From contig JAKUQR010000004.1 in assembly GCA_022450155.1 (NCBI GenBank), forward strand, positions 1-64,000: a stretch of DNA of 64,000 bases, written 5' to 3'. The notes under the pieces are model-generated. The model did not search any database, had not been told where the DNA came from, and saw only the letters and a list, made by a program, of their open reading frames with translations. Origin of the DNA: Gammaproteobacteria bacterium (lineage in GTDB: Bacteria > Pseudomonadota > Gammaproteobacteria > Arenicellales > UBA868). Positions 8,464-55,416 of this stretch are shown here, piece after piece. Numbering within the stretch: the stretch's first letter is position 1; each line of letters begins with the position of its first letter. The position numbers and the translations under genes are program-made.

Positions 8464-11343
8464 TTATTCATCGACCGGAAAAAATCGACCAAGGCTCGAA
8501 CGAAATGCCAGTGGATCGACAATTTCATTTCTAGGCAGCGCTGCCTCGGCGCCCGTCACTGCACCAAAACTGCGGACTACCAGGTGCGGACGAGCGAGAT
8601 CAAGCACCGATGTTTGGAAGAACTTACGGAAGTCGTCCAGTGAAACTTCGTTGATTGCTGCTGCGAGCCGTTCACGACTATCAAATCCGTAGTCGTTCCG
8701 ATCGATCTCGAGCCAGTAGCGACTGCTTCGATACGACAATTTTTCCTCCTGGCGCATCACATCACCCACCAAACTGCTGCGGTGCTGTTCAAACTCGGCG
8801 CTGGTCATGCTATCGATCGACGCTGCATAATCATGCAAAAATTCAATCATTGCCGCCTCTATCGCGTCAGGTGCTTGATTCGGCGACTGCACTATAAACA
8901 CCAGGCCCGGCAACTGCATCACGTCCATAGCCCCACTGAACACGAAATACCCCATCTGCTGTTCAGTCCTCAAACTCTGATAAAACGGTGCGTTCATGAC
9001 TTGCCCCGCTAAATAATATTTCGCCCGATCGCTAAGTTCGTGACTCTCCCCCTGCAGATACAGTGCTAGCACGGCATCGGGATGGTCGATCGATAAAGTT
9101 CGAACCCGTGCCTCACTCGCCGCTAGTCGGACTACCTGGCCGTGGGGAACGACAGCGGCGCGGTTCGTCCCCAGCAATTCTCCAGCAACAAGCGCAGCAA
9201 GCGACAGTGCTTCCTCCCGGGTGTAATTCCCATGGGCGAGCGCCACTGATTCGACCGACTCCAACAACTGCGGAACGAAAGCTTCTAGGGCTTCGCGGGT
9301 TGCAGCTTCAGCAGCTTCGATCTTAACGTTGGGCCACCAGATCGTATCGAGCAACAAACGTCGTAAATCCGCTATGGCCTGTTCGTAGGGCTGTTCGAGT
9401 GCCAAGTTACGAAGTTGTTGGACTAGATTATCCTGAAGTCGGTCGAAGCGTTCCGATGTTACCTCGGGAACTCGAAGTGCGGCGAGGATCGTCTCCAGCA
9501 ACACTGCCTGTTTATCCGTATACCCCGAGATCTTCAAGGTGAACCCACGCTGGTGATCGTATAACTCAAATCCAAGCCCGGCGAGTTGGGCGGGGTATGA
9601 AAATGCATTCAACTGATCGGCCACCACCGCCGCATACAAGTTTGTCAACACGGCTTCTCTTGGCGTCGTTCGCGCGTGAGGCGAGCGAATACTTACGTAA
9701 AAATTTCCGCGCGGCGACCCGTAGGAGGTATCGTGGTCGAACCACAACGTAAACCCATCTTGAATGTCGATGCGTGTGGGCTTAGATACCTCTAGTTGCT
9801 CCTGGCGCAACTCCAGATCTACAGCAAGAAACGGATTGGGCTTCGGAAGGTAAAGATCAGGATTGGTCGATAGACCTGACCAATCCTCGAGTACATCGCT
9901 AGGCAAAGTCTCCAAACTGTAGTGAACCCCATAGTGGGTCTCTACCTGGTCGGTTTCGAGCTCCGGCCCGACCAGTAACAAGTGGAGATTGCGGGGTTGC
10001 AATCGATCAAGGTAGGAAAGAATCAGTTCCCTATTGAACTTGTCATAACGATATGGCGCGTAATAAAGATCTTGAACTGGGTAATCATGCATGCGAGCCG
10101 CGAATGCCCGAACCAGAGTGTAGGCTTCAACGTCCTCTCGAAATCGAAAATCAATCTCGGCCAGTTTGCGCTGCTCATCGAATACCCACGACGTTACGCC
10201 CTCTTCACTAATCTGCCGGATAAGTGCAAACAACCAAGCCCCGATACGCTGGTAGTTCTCGAGGCCCGACTCGGTTAACGAAATCGTGACTTCAAAGGTG
10301 CCGTAATGTTCGTAACTCAACCCGCCGCCGGCCGATAGCCCCTCGGCCCAGCCCTGTTCTTTCAATAACGCAAACAGCGAACCGGGCCCCTCATCTCCGA
10401 GGAGGCTCGCAATGTAAGACAGCGGTTTTGCCGCATAGTCGTCGAGCGCCGAAGGTATTGCAAACGAGAAAACAGCTTGCCGGATTTCCTTAACAGGGAT
10501 GATCTTCTGAAGCAGCGGTAATGTCCCGAGCGGGTAGATTGGAACTTCCGTCTGTGGGGCAATGGCCTTCCCGGCCGGCACGCCTTCAAACAATTCTTCG
10601 ACCCAGTCACGCAGCAGGACCGTTGATTCCCGGCCTAAAACGACCAAAGTCATACTCTCAGCCCGGTAATGTGCCTCGTAAAAACCGATGAGGTCTTCCC
10701 GCACCAAGTCTCCTTCACGATCAGCGAGAGTATTCTCGTTCCCAACAGCAAAACCCGACTCGGGATGCCGTGGGTCAAATGCTTGGCGTCTGGCTGCCAG
10801 ATAGCGTCTTCCATCCGACTGCAATTTGGCGCTGAATTCGGCGTGTACGATACCGCGTTCTCGCTCTATAAACCTGGGGTTGAAAAGCGCGGCGACAAAA
10901 AATTGGGAGAACCTCTCCAGTGCACCCCTAAGATATTGGGACTCAATATCAAAATAATAATTGGTGTGATCCGGCATCGTGTAAGCGTTATCATTGCCAC
11001 CGTGCAGCTGGATAAAGGCCTGATACTCCCCCGCTTCCGGATACCGCTCTGTACCCAGGAACAACATATGCTCAAGCAAATGAGCAAGACCCGGCCGTTC
11101 TTCCGGATCACTGCCACTGCCCACCCGAACATCGAGCGCCGCCGCCGCCTTGTCCGTATGGGGGTCGGATATTAACAATACCCGCAGTCCATTTTTGAGA
11201 CGATGTGCGAGATAATCCCGATCATCGGATGGGCTGGTGATGATATCCGCAACAGCTTGGCCAGCTTCATAATGCTGAGCAGGAGTAACGGCAGTTGCCA
11301 GCAGAAATACCAGCAGTCCGGCGAGATATCGCAATAGTTTCAC
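8464..11343 (-). CDS. M16 family zinc peptidase (pitrilysin/insulinase type)
   Basis: 959 residues, the length of protease III/insulin-degrading enzymes, acting in the periplasm. A signal peptide (KLLRYLAGLLVFLLATAVTPA) precedes the catalytic half. The inverted zinc motif HLLEH is at His88-Glu91-His92, followed by MLFLGTERYPEAGEY and NAYTMPDHTNYYF; the third zinc ligand should be a Glu near residue 169 (RGIVHAEF region). The catalytically inactive C-terminal half closes the chamber. The start is GTG, inside the repeat shared with the copper chaperone gene. It appears to be transcribed alone or ahead of the broken copper locus. Confidence 0.9.
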   Translation of the reverse strand: MKLLRYLAGLLVFLLATAVTPAQHYEAGQAVADIITSPSDDRDYLAHRLKNGLRVLLISDPHTDKAAAALDVRVGSGSDPEERPGLAHLLEHMLFLGTERYPEAGEYQAFIQLHGGNDNAYTMPDHTNYYFDIESQYLRGALERFSQFFVAALFNPRFIERERGIVHAEFSAKLQSDGRRYLAARRQAFDPRHPESGFAVGNENTLADREGDLVREDLIGFYEAHYRAESMTLVVLGRESTVLLRDWVEELFEGVPAGKAIAPQTEVPIYPLGTLPLLQKIIPVKEIRQAVFSFAIPSALDDYAAKPLSYIASLLGDEGPGSLFALLKEQGWAEGLSAGGGLSYEHYGTFEVTISLTESGLENYQRIGAWLFALIRQISEEGVTSWVFDEQRKLAEIDFRFREDVEAYTLVRAFAARMHDYPVQDLYYAPYRYDKFNRELILSYLDRLQPRNLHLLLVGPELETDQVETHYGVHYSLETLPSDVLEDWSGLSTNPDLYLPKPNPFLAVDLELRQEQLEVSKPTRIDIQDGFTLWFDHDTSYGSPRGNFYVSIRSPHARTTPREAVLTNLYAAVVADQLNAFSYPAQLAGLGFELYDHQRGFTLKISGYTDKQAVLLETILAALRVPEVTSERFDRLQDNLVQQLRNLALEQPYEQAIADLRRLLLDTIWWPNVKIEAAEAATREALEAFVPQLLESVESVALAHGNYTREEALSLAALVAGELLGTNRAAVVPHGQVVRLAASEARVRTLSIDHPDAVLALYLQGESHELSDRAKYYLAGQVMNAPFYQSLRTEQQMGYFVFSGAMDVMQLPGLVFIVQSPNQAPDAIEAAMIEFLHDYAASIDSMTSAEFEQHRSSLVGDVMRQEEKLSYRSSRYWLEIDRNDYGFDSRERLAAAINEVSLDDFRKFFQTSVLDLARPHLVVRSFGAVTGAEAALPRNEIVDPLAFRSSLGRFFPVDE

Positions 11344-50512: not shown

Positions 50513-51301
50513 ATGCCGCTGCTTGATGTCGTGGTTTCGGCAGTGGCAGCAGTTGGCGGTTATCTGCTGCTGTTTAAGTACTGGCCGTTGGGTCCCGCCG
50601 CAGGCTCAGGAGTTAAGCACATGACCTGGGTGGATCCGCCGACCGGCGACAGCTTTACCATCGGCACCTACAATATTCACCGGTCCCGGGGGACTGACGG
50701 CCGACGCGACCTTAATCGTATTGCCGAGGTTATTAAAGACTGTGACATTGTTGGATTGCAGGAAGTCGAAGGATCAACCTGGCGCGGACTGAACAACCAG
50801 GCCTACTTGTTGTCAGAAAAGCTCGCTTGCGCGGTTCATTTCGCGCCCACCCGGCGGCGATGTCTGGTGGCGAATCGAGGCAATGCCCTGCTTACGCGTA
50901 TTCCCGTCGAACGCTGGCATCGTGAACCCTTATTGCCGACGCACGGCAAGCGTTATCGCAACCTGACACGATACGAGATCGGTGTGAACGGCAAGACGGT
51001 GCATGTCATTAACACGCACCTATCTCATCCGGATCGTCAACGCCATCCGTTTGAACGGGTATTGGATGTTTTTGAACAATACGATCACGCGATTCTGCTC
51101 GGTGACTTTAACGTTGAAGCGGGTCACGAGTGCCTTGACCGACTGCGAACGCTTGCAGCGCAGGACGCAGCTAGCCAGGCCGGAGGGCCACCCGGGCGCA
51201 TTGACTGGTTGCTTGTTCGCGGGTTGAAGATTATTGATGCGTGGTACACCCCGGCCGGACCATCAGACCATCCGTTCTACGCGGTGCGCGTTTCCTTCTA
51301 A
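50513..51301 (+). CDS. endonuclease/exonuclease/phosphatase family protein
   Basis: 262 residues. A hydrophobic N-terminus (VVVSAVAAVGGYLLLF) anchors or exports a domain of the DNase I-like fold. Motifs: TYNIHRSRG (Asn), GLQEVEG (Glu metal ligand), NTHLSH (His), LGDFNVEAG (Asp, Asn), RIDWLLVRG (Asp) and PSDHPFYAV (Asp-His). The complete active site suggests a phosphodiesterase or nuclease, substrate unknown. Its stop overlaps the convergent LPS-kinase-like gene by four bases. Confidence 0.85.
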   Translation: MPLLDVVVSAVAAVGGYLLLFKYWPLGPAAGSGVKHMTWVDPPTGDSFTIGTYNIHRSRGTDGRRDLNRIAEVIKDCDIVGLQEVEGSTWRGLNNQAYLLSEKLACAVHFAPTRRRCLVANRGNALLTRIPVERWHREPLLPTHGKRYRNLTRYEIGVNGKTVHVINTHLSHPDRQRHPFERVLDVFEQYDHAILLGDFNVEAGHECLDRLRTLAAQDAASQAGGPPGRIDWLLVRGLKIIDAWYTPAGPSDHPFYAVRVSF

Positions 51302-52074
51302 GACGGGTGGTCGGTCAGGAAACCTTGGGCCGACAGCAATTGCCGGGCGGTCGCCAGTAAAACCGGGTTGTCTTGCCAGTTTCGAAGAAAGCGGTTGATG
51401 TCTTTTCTGGCGGCCTGTTGATAAGTTGATTCACTCTTATGCTGCCGCATGACGTCGAGATCGATCAGTACCGGCCCACGGCTCGACAGCAAAATGTTGC
51501 TGGCTTTAAGGTCACCATGTGAGATCCGCTCACGCCTCAGCTTGCACAGGATCTCGACTATCTCGCCCAAGGTTCTTTCGATCTCGGCAGGGGGAACATC
51601 ACCTTTGAAATGGTCTAGACAGCTGATTCCATCCACAAATTCAGATACAAACCAGGATCTACCCTTTAAACCAACCTGGATTTCCTGGATCCAGGCAACG
51701 GCCGGTGCCACAGAAATATCCAGGCTCCGCAAGGTTCGGGTGAAGTGCCAGCAGTTCTCAGCTCGTGAGCTGCGAACGGTGCGGCGGAGACGATGCCAGG
51801 CATTCTTGGTGTTGTAACGCTTGATTACAAATGTGTGACTATCTCGGAAGATTAGTCCAACCGTAGTTGTGTTGTCGTTTTTTACGATGTGACATTCTGG
51901 ATCGGACAGTGCTAGATCTGGGTTCTTGAGAGTGTGGCGTATCAGCGGTGAATCATCGCGTAAATAATGGTGTATATGTAGATGACCTGAGGAAAGTTGA
52001 TTCGCCATATCGGAGAGCAGCGTGAGGTTGTCCGTCGGGATCTGCGATTGTGTTTCCATCTGTAAATCGCGCAT
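51298..52074 (-). CDS. lipopolysaccharide kinase (InaA/WaaP-like) family protein
   Basis: 258 residues of the bacterial protein-kinase-like fold. FVIKRYN holds the ATP-binding Lys, FVSEFVDG is the hinge, ISHGDLKASNILL is the catalytic loop with Asp, and VLIDLDVM is the DFG-equivalent. It probably phosphorylates a heptose or Kdo of the LPS inner core. It sits 30 bases after the fused transferase/kinase, so this cell has two such kinases in tandem. Confidence 0.82.
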   Translation of the reverse strand: MRDLQMETQSQIPTDNLTLLSDMANQLSSGHLHIHHYLRDDSPLIRHTLKNPDLALSDPECHIVKNDNTTTVGLIFRDSHTFVIKRYNTKNAWHRLRRTVRSSRAENCWHFTRTLRSLDISVAPAVAWIQEIQVGLKGRSWFVSEFVDGISCLDHFKGDVPPAEIERTLGEIVEILCKLRRERISHGDLKASNILLSSRGPVLIDLDVMRQHKSESTYQQAARKDINRFLRNWQDNPVLLATARQLLSAQGFLTDHPS

Positions 52075-52103: not shown

Positions 52104-54311
52104 TCAGTGCTGGATCCTGGCCGGTGTCAGAGGGGTGTTAGCAACATTGCCTGTCTTTCTCGTCCGACGCGGTTCAGAACGATACAGGTTCTGGGCGCGT
52201 GATCGCACTTTGCGCCAAAAGCGGTTGTTGTTTTGCAACGCCTCGAGTACCTGTCGGTTGCTGATATTTTCGTAAGTAGACATGAATCTTATAAGGTCGC
52301 GTTTGGTTAGGCCGAGACCCATACTGGAGTAGTGCAGTCCGGACACGTCTCTCATCTTCCAGCGGGAGGGAGTTACGCTCTGTGGTGGTTGGGGTCGCTG
52401 CAGTTTTAGCGCCCCTTGTACGATCGCCTTGATCCAGGCGCTTTTCGTTGGTTTATGAATCTGCATTCGGTGTAGGTCGATAAGGAAAAGACTGCAATTT
52501 TCGGGAGTTGGTTCATGCGACTCTTTGGTCCGCTGCAGCAGGAAATGACTGAGGTAGAAGTCCCGATGGTTGGCACCGCTGTTGTGCAGAATTCGAGCTG
52601 TTTGTGCTAGTTGTTCGATTAACCAGCGTTTAAAGCAAATTTTGTCGGGTAGCTTGTTGGCATTACGCCCCCAAAATTTTTTATCTTTGAACAGATCTTC
52701 AAGACTTATAGCTCTTGGAATCTCATCTGTCACGATCAGCGATTGGCGTTTAGCAGGATTGTTTAATATCTTCCCAAAGCGGCGTTCCCGGGTGCCATAA
52801 CCCGCGATGTTGAGGGTATTCAGTCCAATATTCTGGAGCAGTGTCAGGCGACGAAGGTGGTGGACACCTTTCCATTCATTTTCCGCACCGAGTACGGGCA
52901 ACCGGAGGGAGGTCAGGTTTTTCCCAATTTCTTTCCAACCCACACCATCATGGATTTTCAAGTAGTAACGTTGACCGTTGTGACTGAAGGAAACAGTTCG
53001 GCGACCCTCATCAGCTAGCTTGTCTCGAGCCTCTACGACGTTATGGCGACCACCAATTGCGTTCTTCCCGATATCCAAGAGCTCATCAAAATTCAATTGG
53101 CCAAGATCTTCGCGCAAGTAGATGTTATGTATATTTTGGGTGTCAGGTATGCAGTTTATCGGGGAGATTTTTCTACGTTCGTAAGTCTCAATTGCGTCAA
53201 CGGCTCTAGCTGGCATTTTGTAAAGGACCGGATTCTTGCCGTAGCGTTGGCCATTTTCAGACCATCGGTCGTGATAAGGTGAGGTTAGCATGCTCTCCAA
53301 CTGGGAATTCAGCGCTTCCTGGTCGAACGGTGAGTCCAACACGATACCTGCCTCGGCGGCTTTTATATGGTCCGCATAACCGCACACATCCGTTGCTAAG
53401 ACGGGGAGTCCTGCAGATATAGCTTCAAGCAGAACCGTACCTGTATTTTCGTTATGTGCCGGGTGCACCATCAGATCACCGACGGCAAGCAGTTTGGGGA
53501 TGTCTTCTCGTGATCGCCCACCTAGGAAAAGGACTTGCTTAGATACCGACAGCCTATCGGCCTGTTTTCGGTATTGTTTTTCATCATCATCGTCACCAAC
53601 AACAATCAGACTAGTGCGTTCTTGGATATCTATTGGCAGACTGGCTAGAGCAGTGATGCCCCGATCAAGCCCTTTAGTTCTGAAGCCAGAACCAATAAAC
53701 ATCAGCAATAGATCGTTGATAGGCAGGTCGAGTTCTACGCGGAGCTTTTCTCTTTGGTGAACGCGATCTGTAATTGGTGAAAAACTTGCGTCCAGTGTCG
53801 GAGGAAGCAAGTGGAATCGCTCATTGGGAGTGAAATAATACTCTTGGTACTCGCTTTTTTGTCGCTCTGACAGCGAAAGAATGAGTGTTTGGCTTTTCAC
53901 GCCGAATACAGCTTCTTCAAATGAATACCGACCCTTGTAGCGTCGCGTCAGTTTGTAGATGGCGGGGTACTGAGTACCTTTATCCCCGACGTAGCAGCTG
54001 TCTGCTCCATAGTAAAGATCAAGACCGGGCATTTTGTTGAAGCCGACGACTACATCAAAGGCCTGTTTCTTGAGCTCTACCTGTAGTTTGTTATGGAACT
54101 GCTCATTTTGGGCATGATTTGAGAATTTCAACGATATCTTCGGAGACTCTAGAACTGTAAACTGGGCCCCCTCCGGACGCTCTCCCTGCCACTCCGACAC
54201 AAAAACGTGTGCACTGTGTCCTCGGTTCAGGCACTCCTCCAGAATACGGCCAAAGTCGAGTGATAGACCGCTGTAGGGCGAATACTTAAACAGACAGAAT
54301 GCGATTTTCAT
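52104..54311 (-). CDS. fused LPS-core glycosyltransferase (WaaG-like) and heptose kinase (WaaP-like)
   Basis: 735 residues with two domains. Residues 1-385 are a GT-B glycosyltransferase of family 4, like WaaG: MKIAFCLFKYSPYSGLSLDF, FIGSGFRTKGLDRGI, and the E-x7-E pair E288/E296 in NENTGTVLLEAISAGLPVL. Residues 400-735 are a WaaP-type kinase: YYLKIH with Lys452, ENEW, the catalytic loop NHRDFYLSHFLL with Asp584 and the metal-binding IDLHRMQI with Asp612. In Pseudomonas these are separate adjacent genes. The fusion would add glucose to and phosphorylate inner-core heptose. No stop or frame break separates the halves. Confidence 0.88.
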   Translation of the reverse strand: MKIAFCLFKYSPYSGLSLDFGRILEECLNRGHSAHVFVSEWQGERPEGAQFTVLESPKISLKFSNHAQNEQFHNKLQVELKKQAFDVVVGFNKMPGLDLYYGADSCYVGDKGTQYPAIYKLTRRYKGRYSFEEAVFGVKSQTLILSLSERQKSEYQEYYFTPNERFHLLPPTLDASFSPITDRVHQREKLRVELDLPINDLLLMFIGSGFRTKGLDRGITALASLPIDIQERTSLIVVGDDDDEKQYRKQADRLSVSKQVLFLGGRSREDIPKLLAVGDLMVHPAHNENTGTVLLEAISAGLPVLATDVCGYADHIKAAEAGIVLDSPFDQEALNSQLESMLTSPYHDRWSENGQRYGKNPVLYKMPARAVDAIETYERRKISPINCIPDTQNIHNIYLREDLGQLNFDELLDIGKNAIGGRHNVVEARDKLADEGRRTVSFSHNGQRYYLKIHDGVGWKEIGKNLTSLRLPVLGAENEWKGVHHLRRLTLLQNIGLNTLNIAGYGTRERRFGKILNNPAKRQSLIVTDEIPRAISLEDLFKDKKFWGRNANKLPDKICFKRWLIEQLAQTARILHNSGANHRDFYLSHFLLQRTKESHEPTPENCSLFLIDLHRMQIHKPTKSAWIKAIVQGALKLQRPQPPQSVTPSRWKMRDVSGLHYSSMGLGLTKRDLIRFMSTYENISNRQVLEALQNNNRFWRKVRSRAQNLYRSEPRRTRKTGNVANTPLTPARIQH

Positions 54312-54417: not shown

Positions 54418-55416
54418 CTAACGGCACTCCCAGTTGTAGGCCGTGCGGCAGATTATCGCCAGGTCATCGTATTGCGGTGTCCACTTCAAGACCTCCCGAA
54501 TCGCACGGTTATCGGCCACTAATTGGGCAGGATCCCCCGCCCGACGGTCCGCCTCTACGATGGCTAAGTGCTTGCCGCTGACCTGCTCGATGGTATCAAG
54601 GACCTGACGGACACTGAAACCCCGACCATAACCACAATTCAGAACCTGTGATTCGCCCCCTGACTGCAGGTGATCGAGCGCGCACAGATGGGCTGCTGCG
54701 AGATCTTCGACATGAATGTAATCCCGGATACAGGTGCCATCGGGTGTAGCGTAATCGTGGCCGAATATCGATATCGACGGGCGCTGCCCGGTTGCGGTTT
54801 CACAGGCGACCTTGATTAAGTGGGTTGCCTCCGGAGTCGCCTGACCCAGAGTGCCGTCAAGACTGGCACCGGCAACATTGAAGTAGCGAAGTGCAACGTA
54901 CTTGAGACCCGTATCGCCTTGCCCACCGCCGAGCGCCATATCACGCAGCGTCCATTCGGTAATCAGCTTGGTCCGGCCGTAGGGGTTGACCGGTATCGTG
55001 GGATGGTGTTCTGCAACCGGGACTTGTTCGGGGTCTCCGTAAACAGCGGCACTGGAAGAAAAAATAAAGTACCCTACTCCTGATTCACAACATGCACGGA
55101 TCAGGTTCAACGATGCGACCACGTTGTTGCGATAGTACTTTGCTGGTTCAGCGACGGATTCGGGTACAACGATATGCCCGGCAAAGTGGATGACCGCATC
55201 GATCCGCTGCTGGCGTAGGAGTGACGACATGGCGGTCTTATCGCTGACATCAAGCTGGTGAAAGTCAGCCGTTGGTGGCACTGCCCAACGATGGCCACTG
55301 TACAGGTTGTCGACAACGGTCACCTGATGTCCGGCTGCCAGCAATTGCCGGACGGTGTGCGAGCCAATATATCCCGCACCACCGGTAACCAGGATTTTTA
55401 GGGGTGATGTCGGCAA
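54418..55416 (-). CDS. galE: UDP-glucose 4-epimerase
   Basis: 332 residues, extended short-chain dehydrogenase. NAD motif VTGGAGYIGSH, catalytic Ser/Tyr/Lys in FSSSAAVYGDP and NPYGRTK, and LNCGYGRGFSVRQVLD. Supplies UDP-galactose for surface sugars, in keeping with the LPS genes around it. TTG start. About 100 bases before the fusion gene on the same strand. Confidence 0.93.
   Translation of the reverse strand: MPTSPLKILVTGGAGYIGSHTVRQLLAAGHQVTVVDNLYSGHRWAVPPTADFHQLDVSDKTAMSSLLRQQRIDAVIHFAGHIVVPESVAEPAKYYRNNVVASLNLIRACCESGVGYFIFSSSAAVYGDPEQVPVAEHHPTIPVNPYGRTKLITEWTLRDMALGGGQGDTGLKYVALRYFNVAGASLDGTLGQATPEATHLIKVACETATGQRPSISIFGHDYATPDGTCIRDYIHVEDLAAAHLCALDHLQSGGESQVLNCGYGRGFSVRQVLDTIEQVSGKHLAIVEADRRAGDPAQLVADNRAIREVLKWTPQYDDLAIICRTAYNWECR

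What the first reader, a model, noticed from the sequence alone, without database searches (positions are those of the whole stretch)
52104..54311. WaaG-like glycosyltransferase fused to a WaaP-like kinase
One uninterrupted frame has a GT4 domain with the E-x7-E pair and a complete kinase domain (Lys452, HRD with Asp584, Asp612). These functions are separate adjacent genes in Pseudomonas. Fusion suggests direct handover of the core oligosaccharide from glucosylation to phosphorylation. A second LPS-kinase-like gene lies next to it.
Basis: partly seen in the sequence, partly recalled or inferred. Interest (0 to 1): 0.6.

Follow-up and report, generated by a model that had tools for sequence, protein, structure and literature searches.

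The report
Fused LPS-core glycosyltransferase and heptose kinase
One marine-bacterial gene joins two enzymes that are usually made separately, one adding a sugar to the lipopolysaccharide core and one phosphorylating it; the fusion is genuine, shared by nearly a whole bacterial order, has arisen more than once, and seems not to have been described.

Summary
It is not an assembly artefact: the same uninterrupted fusion occurs in separate assemblies of two other species of the genus (88-89% identity) and in 62 of the 70 genomes of the order that have a match. Both halves form single clades there, so the order's fusion probably arose once. Similar fusions occur sporadically in at least three other gammaproteobacterial families. 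In some Pseudomonas, waaG and waaP are adjacent and in frame, separated only by TAA before the waaP ATG, so loss of one stop codon would suffice. I found no published description. The most likely function is a bifunctional core enzyme doing two consecutive steps. 'Direct handover' is untested. Notable extra: in one family of the order the glycosyltransferase is fused to the neighbouring second kinase instead, and no WaaP was found. New variant of a known kind; moderate interest.

The parts
52104..54311 (-). waaG::waaP fusion gene, 735 aa, ATG start at 54311, stop at 52104-52106
   Evidence: full-length orthologues
53187..54311 (-). residues 1-375: GT4 glycosyltransferase (WaaG) with E288-x7-E296 and PaWaaG-like sugar-pocket residues D19, Y101, T212, N289, T290, T292
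   Evidence: (Z 47-48 to WaaG structures)
53010..53186 (-). residues 376-434: linker, roughly the N-terminal extension of free WaaP plus a short clade-specific insertion; relaxed selection (dN/dS 0.59-0.76); no in-frame ATG between residue 366 and the kinase
52152..53009 (-). residues 435-720: WaaP/RfaP heptose kinase domain (K452, E479, HRD 582-584, H589, D612); 6 of 7 acyl-ACP-contact basic positions of PaWaaP kept
   Evidence: PMC6147952
52374..52448 (-). residues 622-646: 25-residue insertion between DLHR and the RW helix (activation segment), predicted helical, only in the window's nearest relatives
51298..52074 (-). kin2: second LPS-kinase-like protein (258 aa; K85, HGD188, N193, D205), related to the C-terminal half of a ~490-aa kinase in the Pseudomonas waa cluster
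54418..55416 (-). galE, UDP-glucose/UDP-GlcNAc 4-epimerase type; the only hit over the GalE cut-off in this genome
55482..56513 (-). waaF, LPS heptosyltransferase II

Best explanation
A bifunctional inner-core LPS enzyme. The N-terminal GT4 domain adds the first outer-core sugar to heptose II (more likely from UDP-GalNAc than UDP-glucose), and the C-terminal WaaP domain phosphorylates heptose I of the same core, probably stabilised by acyl-ACP like its free homologue. It arose by loss of the stop codon between adjacent same-frame waaG and waaP genes in an ancestor of the order and has been kept since, which gives 1:1 co-production and keeps two consecutive enzymes at the same membrane substrate. 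Shown: domains, catalytic residues, conservation, synteny, single clade for each half. Inferred: both activities, donor sugar, acceptor positions, benefit of tethering.
For: Both domains complete with catalytic residues conserved. AF2 model mean pLDDT 83.5, pTM 0.80; its GT half matches E. coli and P. aeruginosa WaaG at Z 47-48, rmsd 1.4-1.8 Å. Purifying selection on both domains between congeners (dN/dS 0.17-0.28). 62 of 70 matching genomes of the order fused. The order's GT halves form one clade (100/100, together with two family-f4 proteins), and so do the kinase halves (99). Conserved cluster glnE-ilvE-waaF-(waaC)-galE-[waaG::waaP]-kin2, like Pseudomonas glnE-ilvE-waaF-waaC-waaG-waaP. The Pseudomonas junction is TAA directly followed by in-frame ATG. 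In E. coli WaaP prefers the WaaG product (PMC4942254, PMC6286764). Donor: T212/N289/T290/T292 equal PaWaaG T208/N282/T283/T285, and PaWaaG hydrolyses UDP-GalNAc only (PMC10579960). A second heptosyltransferase, presumably WaaC, is on another contig.
Against: No activity, LPS structure or expression data. The ENTGT motif is widespread in split WaaG too, and galE is missing beside some fusions with the same motif, so the donor is uncertain. The fusion comes and goes in another order, so it is dispensable there and may be nearly neutral.
Confidence: 0.83

Rival explanations
1. Neutral tether: a lost stop codon joined two enzymes that work independently, with no handover of substrate; the fusion persists because nothing selects against it.
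For: Pseudomonas needs only one codon change; in the order of G350 fused, one-stop and fully split forms coexist; the linker is under weak constraint.
Against: Retained in 62 of 70 matching genomes over many families of the order and gained independently elsewhere, which suggests at least mild benefit.
Confidence: 0.45
2. The GT domain uses UDP-glucose as in E. coli.
For: Family-level resemblance to E. coli WaaG (2iv7, 1e-83; Z 48.0).
Against: The diagnostic Arg208/Ala283/Ile285 of glucose-type WaaG are Thr212/Thr290/Thr292 here (PMC10579960); galE adjacent.
Confidence: 0.2
3. The single frame is processed into two proteins (internal start or proteolysis).
For: Long, variable, weakly constrained linker.
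Against: No in-frame ATG or GTG between residues 367 and 450, only three TTG codons without a clear ribosome site.
Confidence: 0.05
4. Assembly or sequencing artefact at the domain boundary.
For: None found.
Against: Same fusion in dozens of independent assemblies.
Confidence: 0.01

Closest known systems
P. aeruginosa WaaG (PA5010; PDB 8b5q/8b5s/8b62), GT4
   Same: Whole GT domain, sugar-pocket residues, position in the waaF-waaC-waaG-waaP cluster
   Different: Free-standing; here fused at its C-terminus to WaaP
P. aeruginosa WaaP / RfaP (PDB 6dfl)
   Same: Catalytic K51/E78/HRD163/H168/D188 equivalents and most basic acyl-ACP contacts
   Different: Free-standing; here preceded by WaaG and, in the window's clade, carrying insertions, one of 25 residues in the activation segment
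E. coli WaaG and WaaP (waaQGP operon)
   Same: Consecutive steps, gene order G then P, WaaP favouring the WaaG product (literature)
   Different: Separate proteins; glucose donor
WaaG::kin2 fusion in family f4 of the same order (L142, L143)
   Same: Same kind of GT half, same locus beside galE
   Different: Kinase half belongs to the neighbouring KdkA/RIO-like family; GT has D19V and EAAGN in place of ENTGT

Membership tests
WaaG (GT4, LPS core) | GT4 fold with E-x7-E and UDP-sugar pocket | tested here: met
   E288/E296, D19; PDB WaaG 1e-94; model Z 47-48 to WaaG
WaaG (GT4, LPS core) | Locus in the core cluster beside heptosyltransferase genes | tested here: met
   waaF two genes upstream; cluster conserved in the order
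WaaG (GT4, LPS core) | Transfer of Glc or GalNAc to HepII | not testable with these tools
   residue comparison only
WaaP/RfaP heptose-I kinase | NCBIfam RfaP equivalog cut-off | tested here: met
   222.6 bits against 170
WaaP/RfaP heptose-I kinase | Catalytic Lys, alphaC Glu, HRD, Mg-binding His, DFG-like Asp | tested here: met
   K452, E479, 582-HRD-584, H589, D612 (PMC6147952)
WaaP/RfaP heptose-I kinase | Basic surface for acyl-ACP | tested here: met
   K561, R562, K670, R671, R675, R686 kept; S678 replaces R229 (read from the alignment); binding itself not tested
WaaP/RfaP heptose-I kinase | Phosphorylates HepI O4 | not testable with these tools
   needs enzyme assay or LPS analysis
KdkA (Kdo kinase), considered for kin2 | NCBIfam KdkA equivalog cut-off | tested here: not met
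   29.7 bits against 142; kin2 is not filed as KdkA

The most novel reading that the evidence does not exclude
An order-wide bifunctional enzyme that passes the LPS core directly from glycosylation to phosphorylation at one membrane site, built on a GT scaffold whose kinase partner can be exchanged: in one family the WaaP half was replaced by the neighbouring kinase, with matching changes in the sugar pocket.
Probability: 0.2. Interest if true: 0.62.

Novelty: new variant of a known kind. Interest (0 to 1): 0.42.

Why it matters
Repeated fusion of WaaG and WaaP implies that the two enzymes may act as a unit where they are separate too, which would give a structural reason for the long-known loss of core phosphorylation in E. 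coli waaG mutants. WaaP is essential in P. aeruginosa and both enzymes are drug targets; a natural fusion with fixed geometry could be a good construct for assays and structures of the pair.

Tried and rejected
Assembly artefact: rejected by orthologues. Internal start: no in-frame ATG or GTG near the junction. kin2 as KdkA: below cut-off. Family f4 as an ordinary split or WaaP fusion: rejected, its C-terminal half is kin2-like and no WaaP was found in G027. Claim that f4 certainly derives from a WaaG::WaaP ancestor: it nests among fused proteins in the tree and no bootstrap tree groups the fused rows without f4, but the AU test does not reject the alternative (p 0.30). G435 as split: its ORF runs off the contig end. 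Papers on a WaaG-WaaP or RfaG-RfaP fusion: none found in four searches of the open library; subscription papers were not searchable. Fold search listed only GT structures because the GT half filled the list; the kinase rests on sequence matches. Coordinates of the model were not available, so distance and orientation of the two active sites could not be measured.

Full report
OBSERVATION. The gene is on the minus strand, 54311→52104, ATG start, 735 codons, no internal stop. Residues 1-375 are a complete WaaG-type GT4 and residues 435-720 a complete WaaP-type kinase. These match PaWaaP K51, D163 and D188 in the printed alignment and the residue list in PMC6147952; E479 (K51's salt-bridge partner E78) and H589 (Mg ligand H168) are also present. 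In 28 fused homologues K452, E479, D584, H589 and D612 are invariant.

IS IT REAL? The same uninterrupted frame is in two other species of the genus at 88-89% identity and in relatives across the family and order. In the order, 70 of 109 genomes have a match at E ≤ 1e-30. In 62 of these one open frame spans both halves. Two (family f4) have another kinase attached. Four are cut by contig ends (G019, G435, G474, G468), and two (G448, G450) have a GT of different ancestry that is not fused (my count from the table). Between congeners dN/dS is 0.17-0.28 in both domains and 0.59-0.76 in the linker (the 25-codon insertion is too short to read). An assembly join is excluded.

ORIGIN. In a tree of 90 GT domains the order's fused proteins group together, apart from the divergent L152 and L077, and fused proteins also appear in at least three other gammaproteobacterial families (L026/L027; L048; L033/L074/L075); well supported branches force at least three changes of state. 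A careful tree puts 29 fused rows of the order and the two f4 rows in one clade (100/100), and the matching kinase halves also form one clade (99), so a single fusion for this clade is the simplest reading. The route is visible in Pseudomonas: waaG and waaP are adjacent, and in L081, L083 and L097 the waaG stop TAA is followed at once by the in-frame ATG of waaP. In the order of G350, fused genes (G350, G495, G502), genes parted by one or two in-frame stops, and fully separate genes coexist; in the order of G328, three of ten genomes are fused. Fusion is therefore easy and recurrent, and fixed in the window's order. Record titles (e.g. 'uncultured Arenicellaceae', L071) suggest that the order is Arenicellales; this is an inference, and names in this group are inconsistent (L052 is titled Candidatus Thioglobus, others Acidiferrobacteraceae).

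CONTEXT. The cluster is glnE-ilvE-waaF-(waaC)-galE-[waaG::waaP]-kin2, the Pseudomonas layout with galE inserted in most members of the order. The window lacks waaC in the cluster, but a second heptosyltransferase-family gene lies on contig C29. kin2 has all kinase motifs (K85, HGD188, N193, D205 invariant in 25 homologues), is below the KdkA cut-off, and corresponds to the C-terminal half of a ~490-aa kinase-like protein further along the Pseudomonas waa cluster. The window's genome has only these two Kdo-family proteins.

MECHANISM. Literature: in E. coli, HepI and HepII phosphorylation by WaaP and WaaY depends largely on the sugar added by WaaG (PMC6286764, PMC4942254). The fusion thus joins two consecutive steps on the same acceptor. 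Donor: PaWaaG hydrolyses only UDP-GalNAc, and the determinants T208, N282, T283 and T285 (R, mostly A, A and I in glucose-type WaaG; PMC10579960) correspond to T212, N289, T290 and T292 here. galE next door, the only hit over the GalE cut-off in the genome, fits a galacto-configured donor. Both points are circumstantial: the motif is common in split WaaG as well, and some fusions with the motif lack galE. Six of seven basic acyl-ACP contacts of PaWaaP are kept, so acyl-ACP binding is likely (one search read against PMC6147952).

EXTRA FINDING. In both genomes of family f4 (G027, G037) the GT half is fused to a kin2-type kinase; no WaaP-type gene was found in G027, whose only other Kdo-family hit is a divergent 304-aa protein beside a xerC-like gene, and G037 is an incomplete genome. 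The GT has lost D19 (V) and has EAAGN instead of ENTGT. It nests among WaaG::WaaP proteins in the tree (98/85 with L068), which would mean a kinase swap by deletion between waaG and kin2, but the AU test does not reject a sister position (p 0.30).

VERDICT. Real, conserved, apparently undescribed bifunctional architecture made of two well-known enzymes: new variant of a known kind.

Noticed in passing
L142 2921-4837 (G027), L143 2096-4015 (G037): WaaG-type GT fused to the kin2-type kinase instead of WaaP, with D19V and EAAGN in the sugar pocket; no WaaP gene found in G027.
   Followed up: partly
window 52374-52448: 25-residue, predicted helical insertion in the kinase activation segment (SAWIKAIVQGALKLQ...), seen only in the window's nearest relatives in the alignment (e.g. 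L004, L006, L007).
   Followed up: partly
L073 7911-10256: Two WaaG-type GT4 domains fused in tandem in one 782-aa frame, followed in the same frame after one stop by waaP.
   Followed up: partly
L081, L083, L097 around 9119-9125: Pseudomonas waaG stop TAA abuts the in-frame waaP ATG; a single codon change would fuse them.
   Followed up: yes
L052 record title: Same-genus genome is titled Candidatus Thioglobus sp. MED-G25 SUP05-clade, while relatives of the same order are titled Acidiferrobacteraceae or Arenicellaceae; public names look inconsistent.
   Followed up: no
P0003 (L083 11313-12860): Pseudomonas ~490-aa protein with two kinase-like halves; only its C-terminal half corresponds to kin2 of the window's order.
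   Followed up: partly
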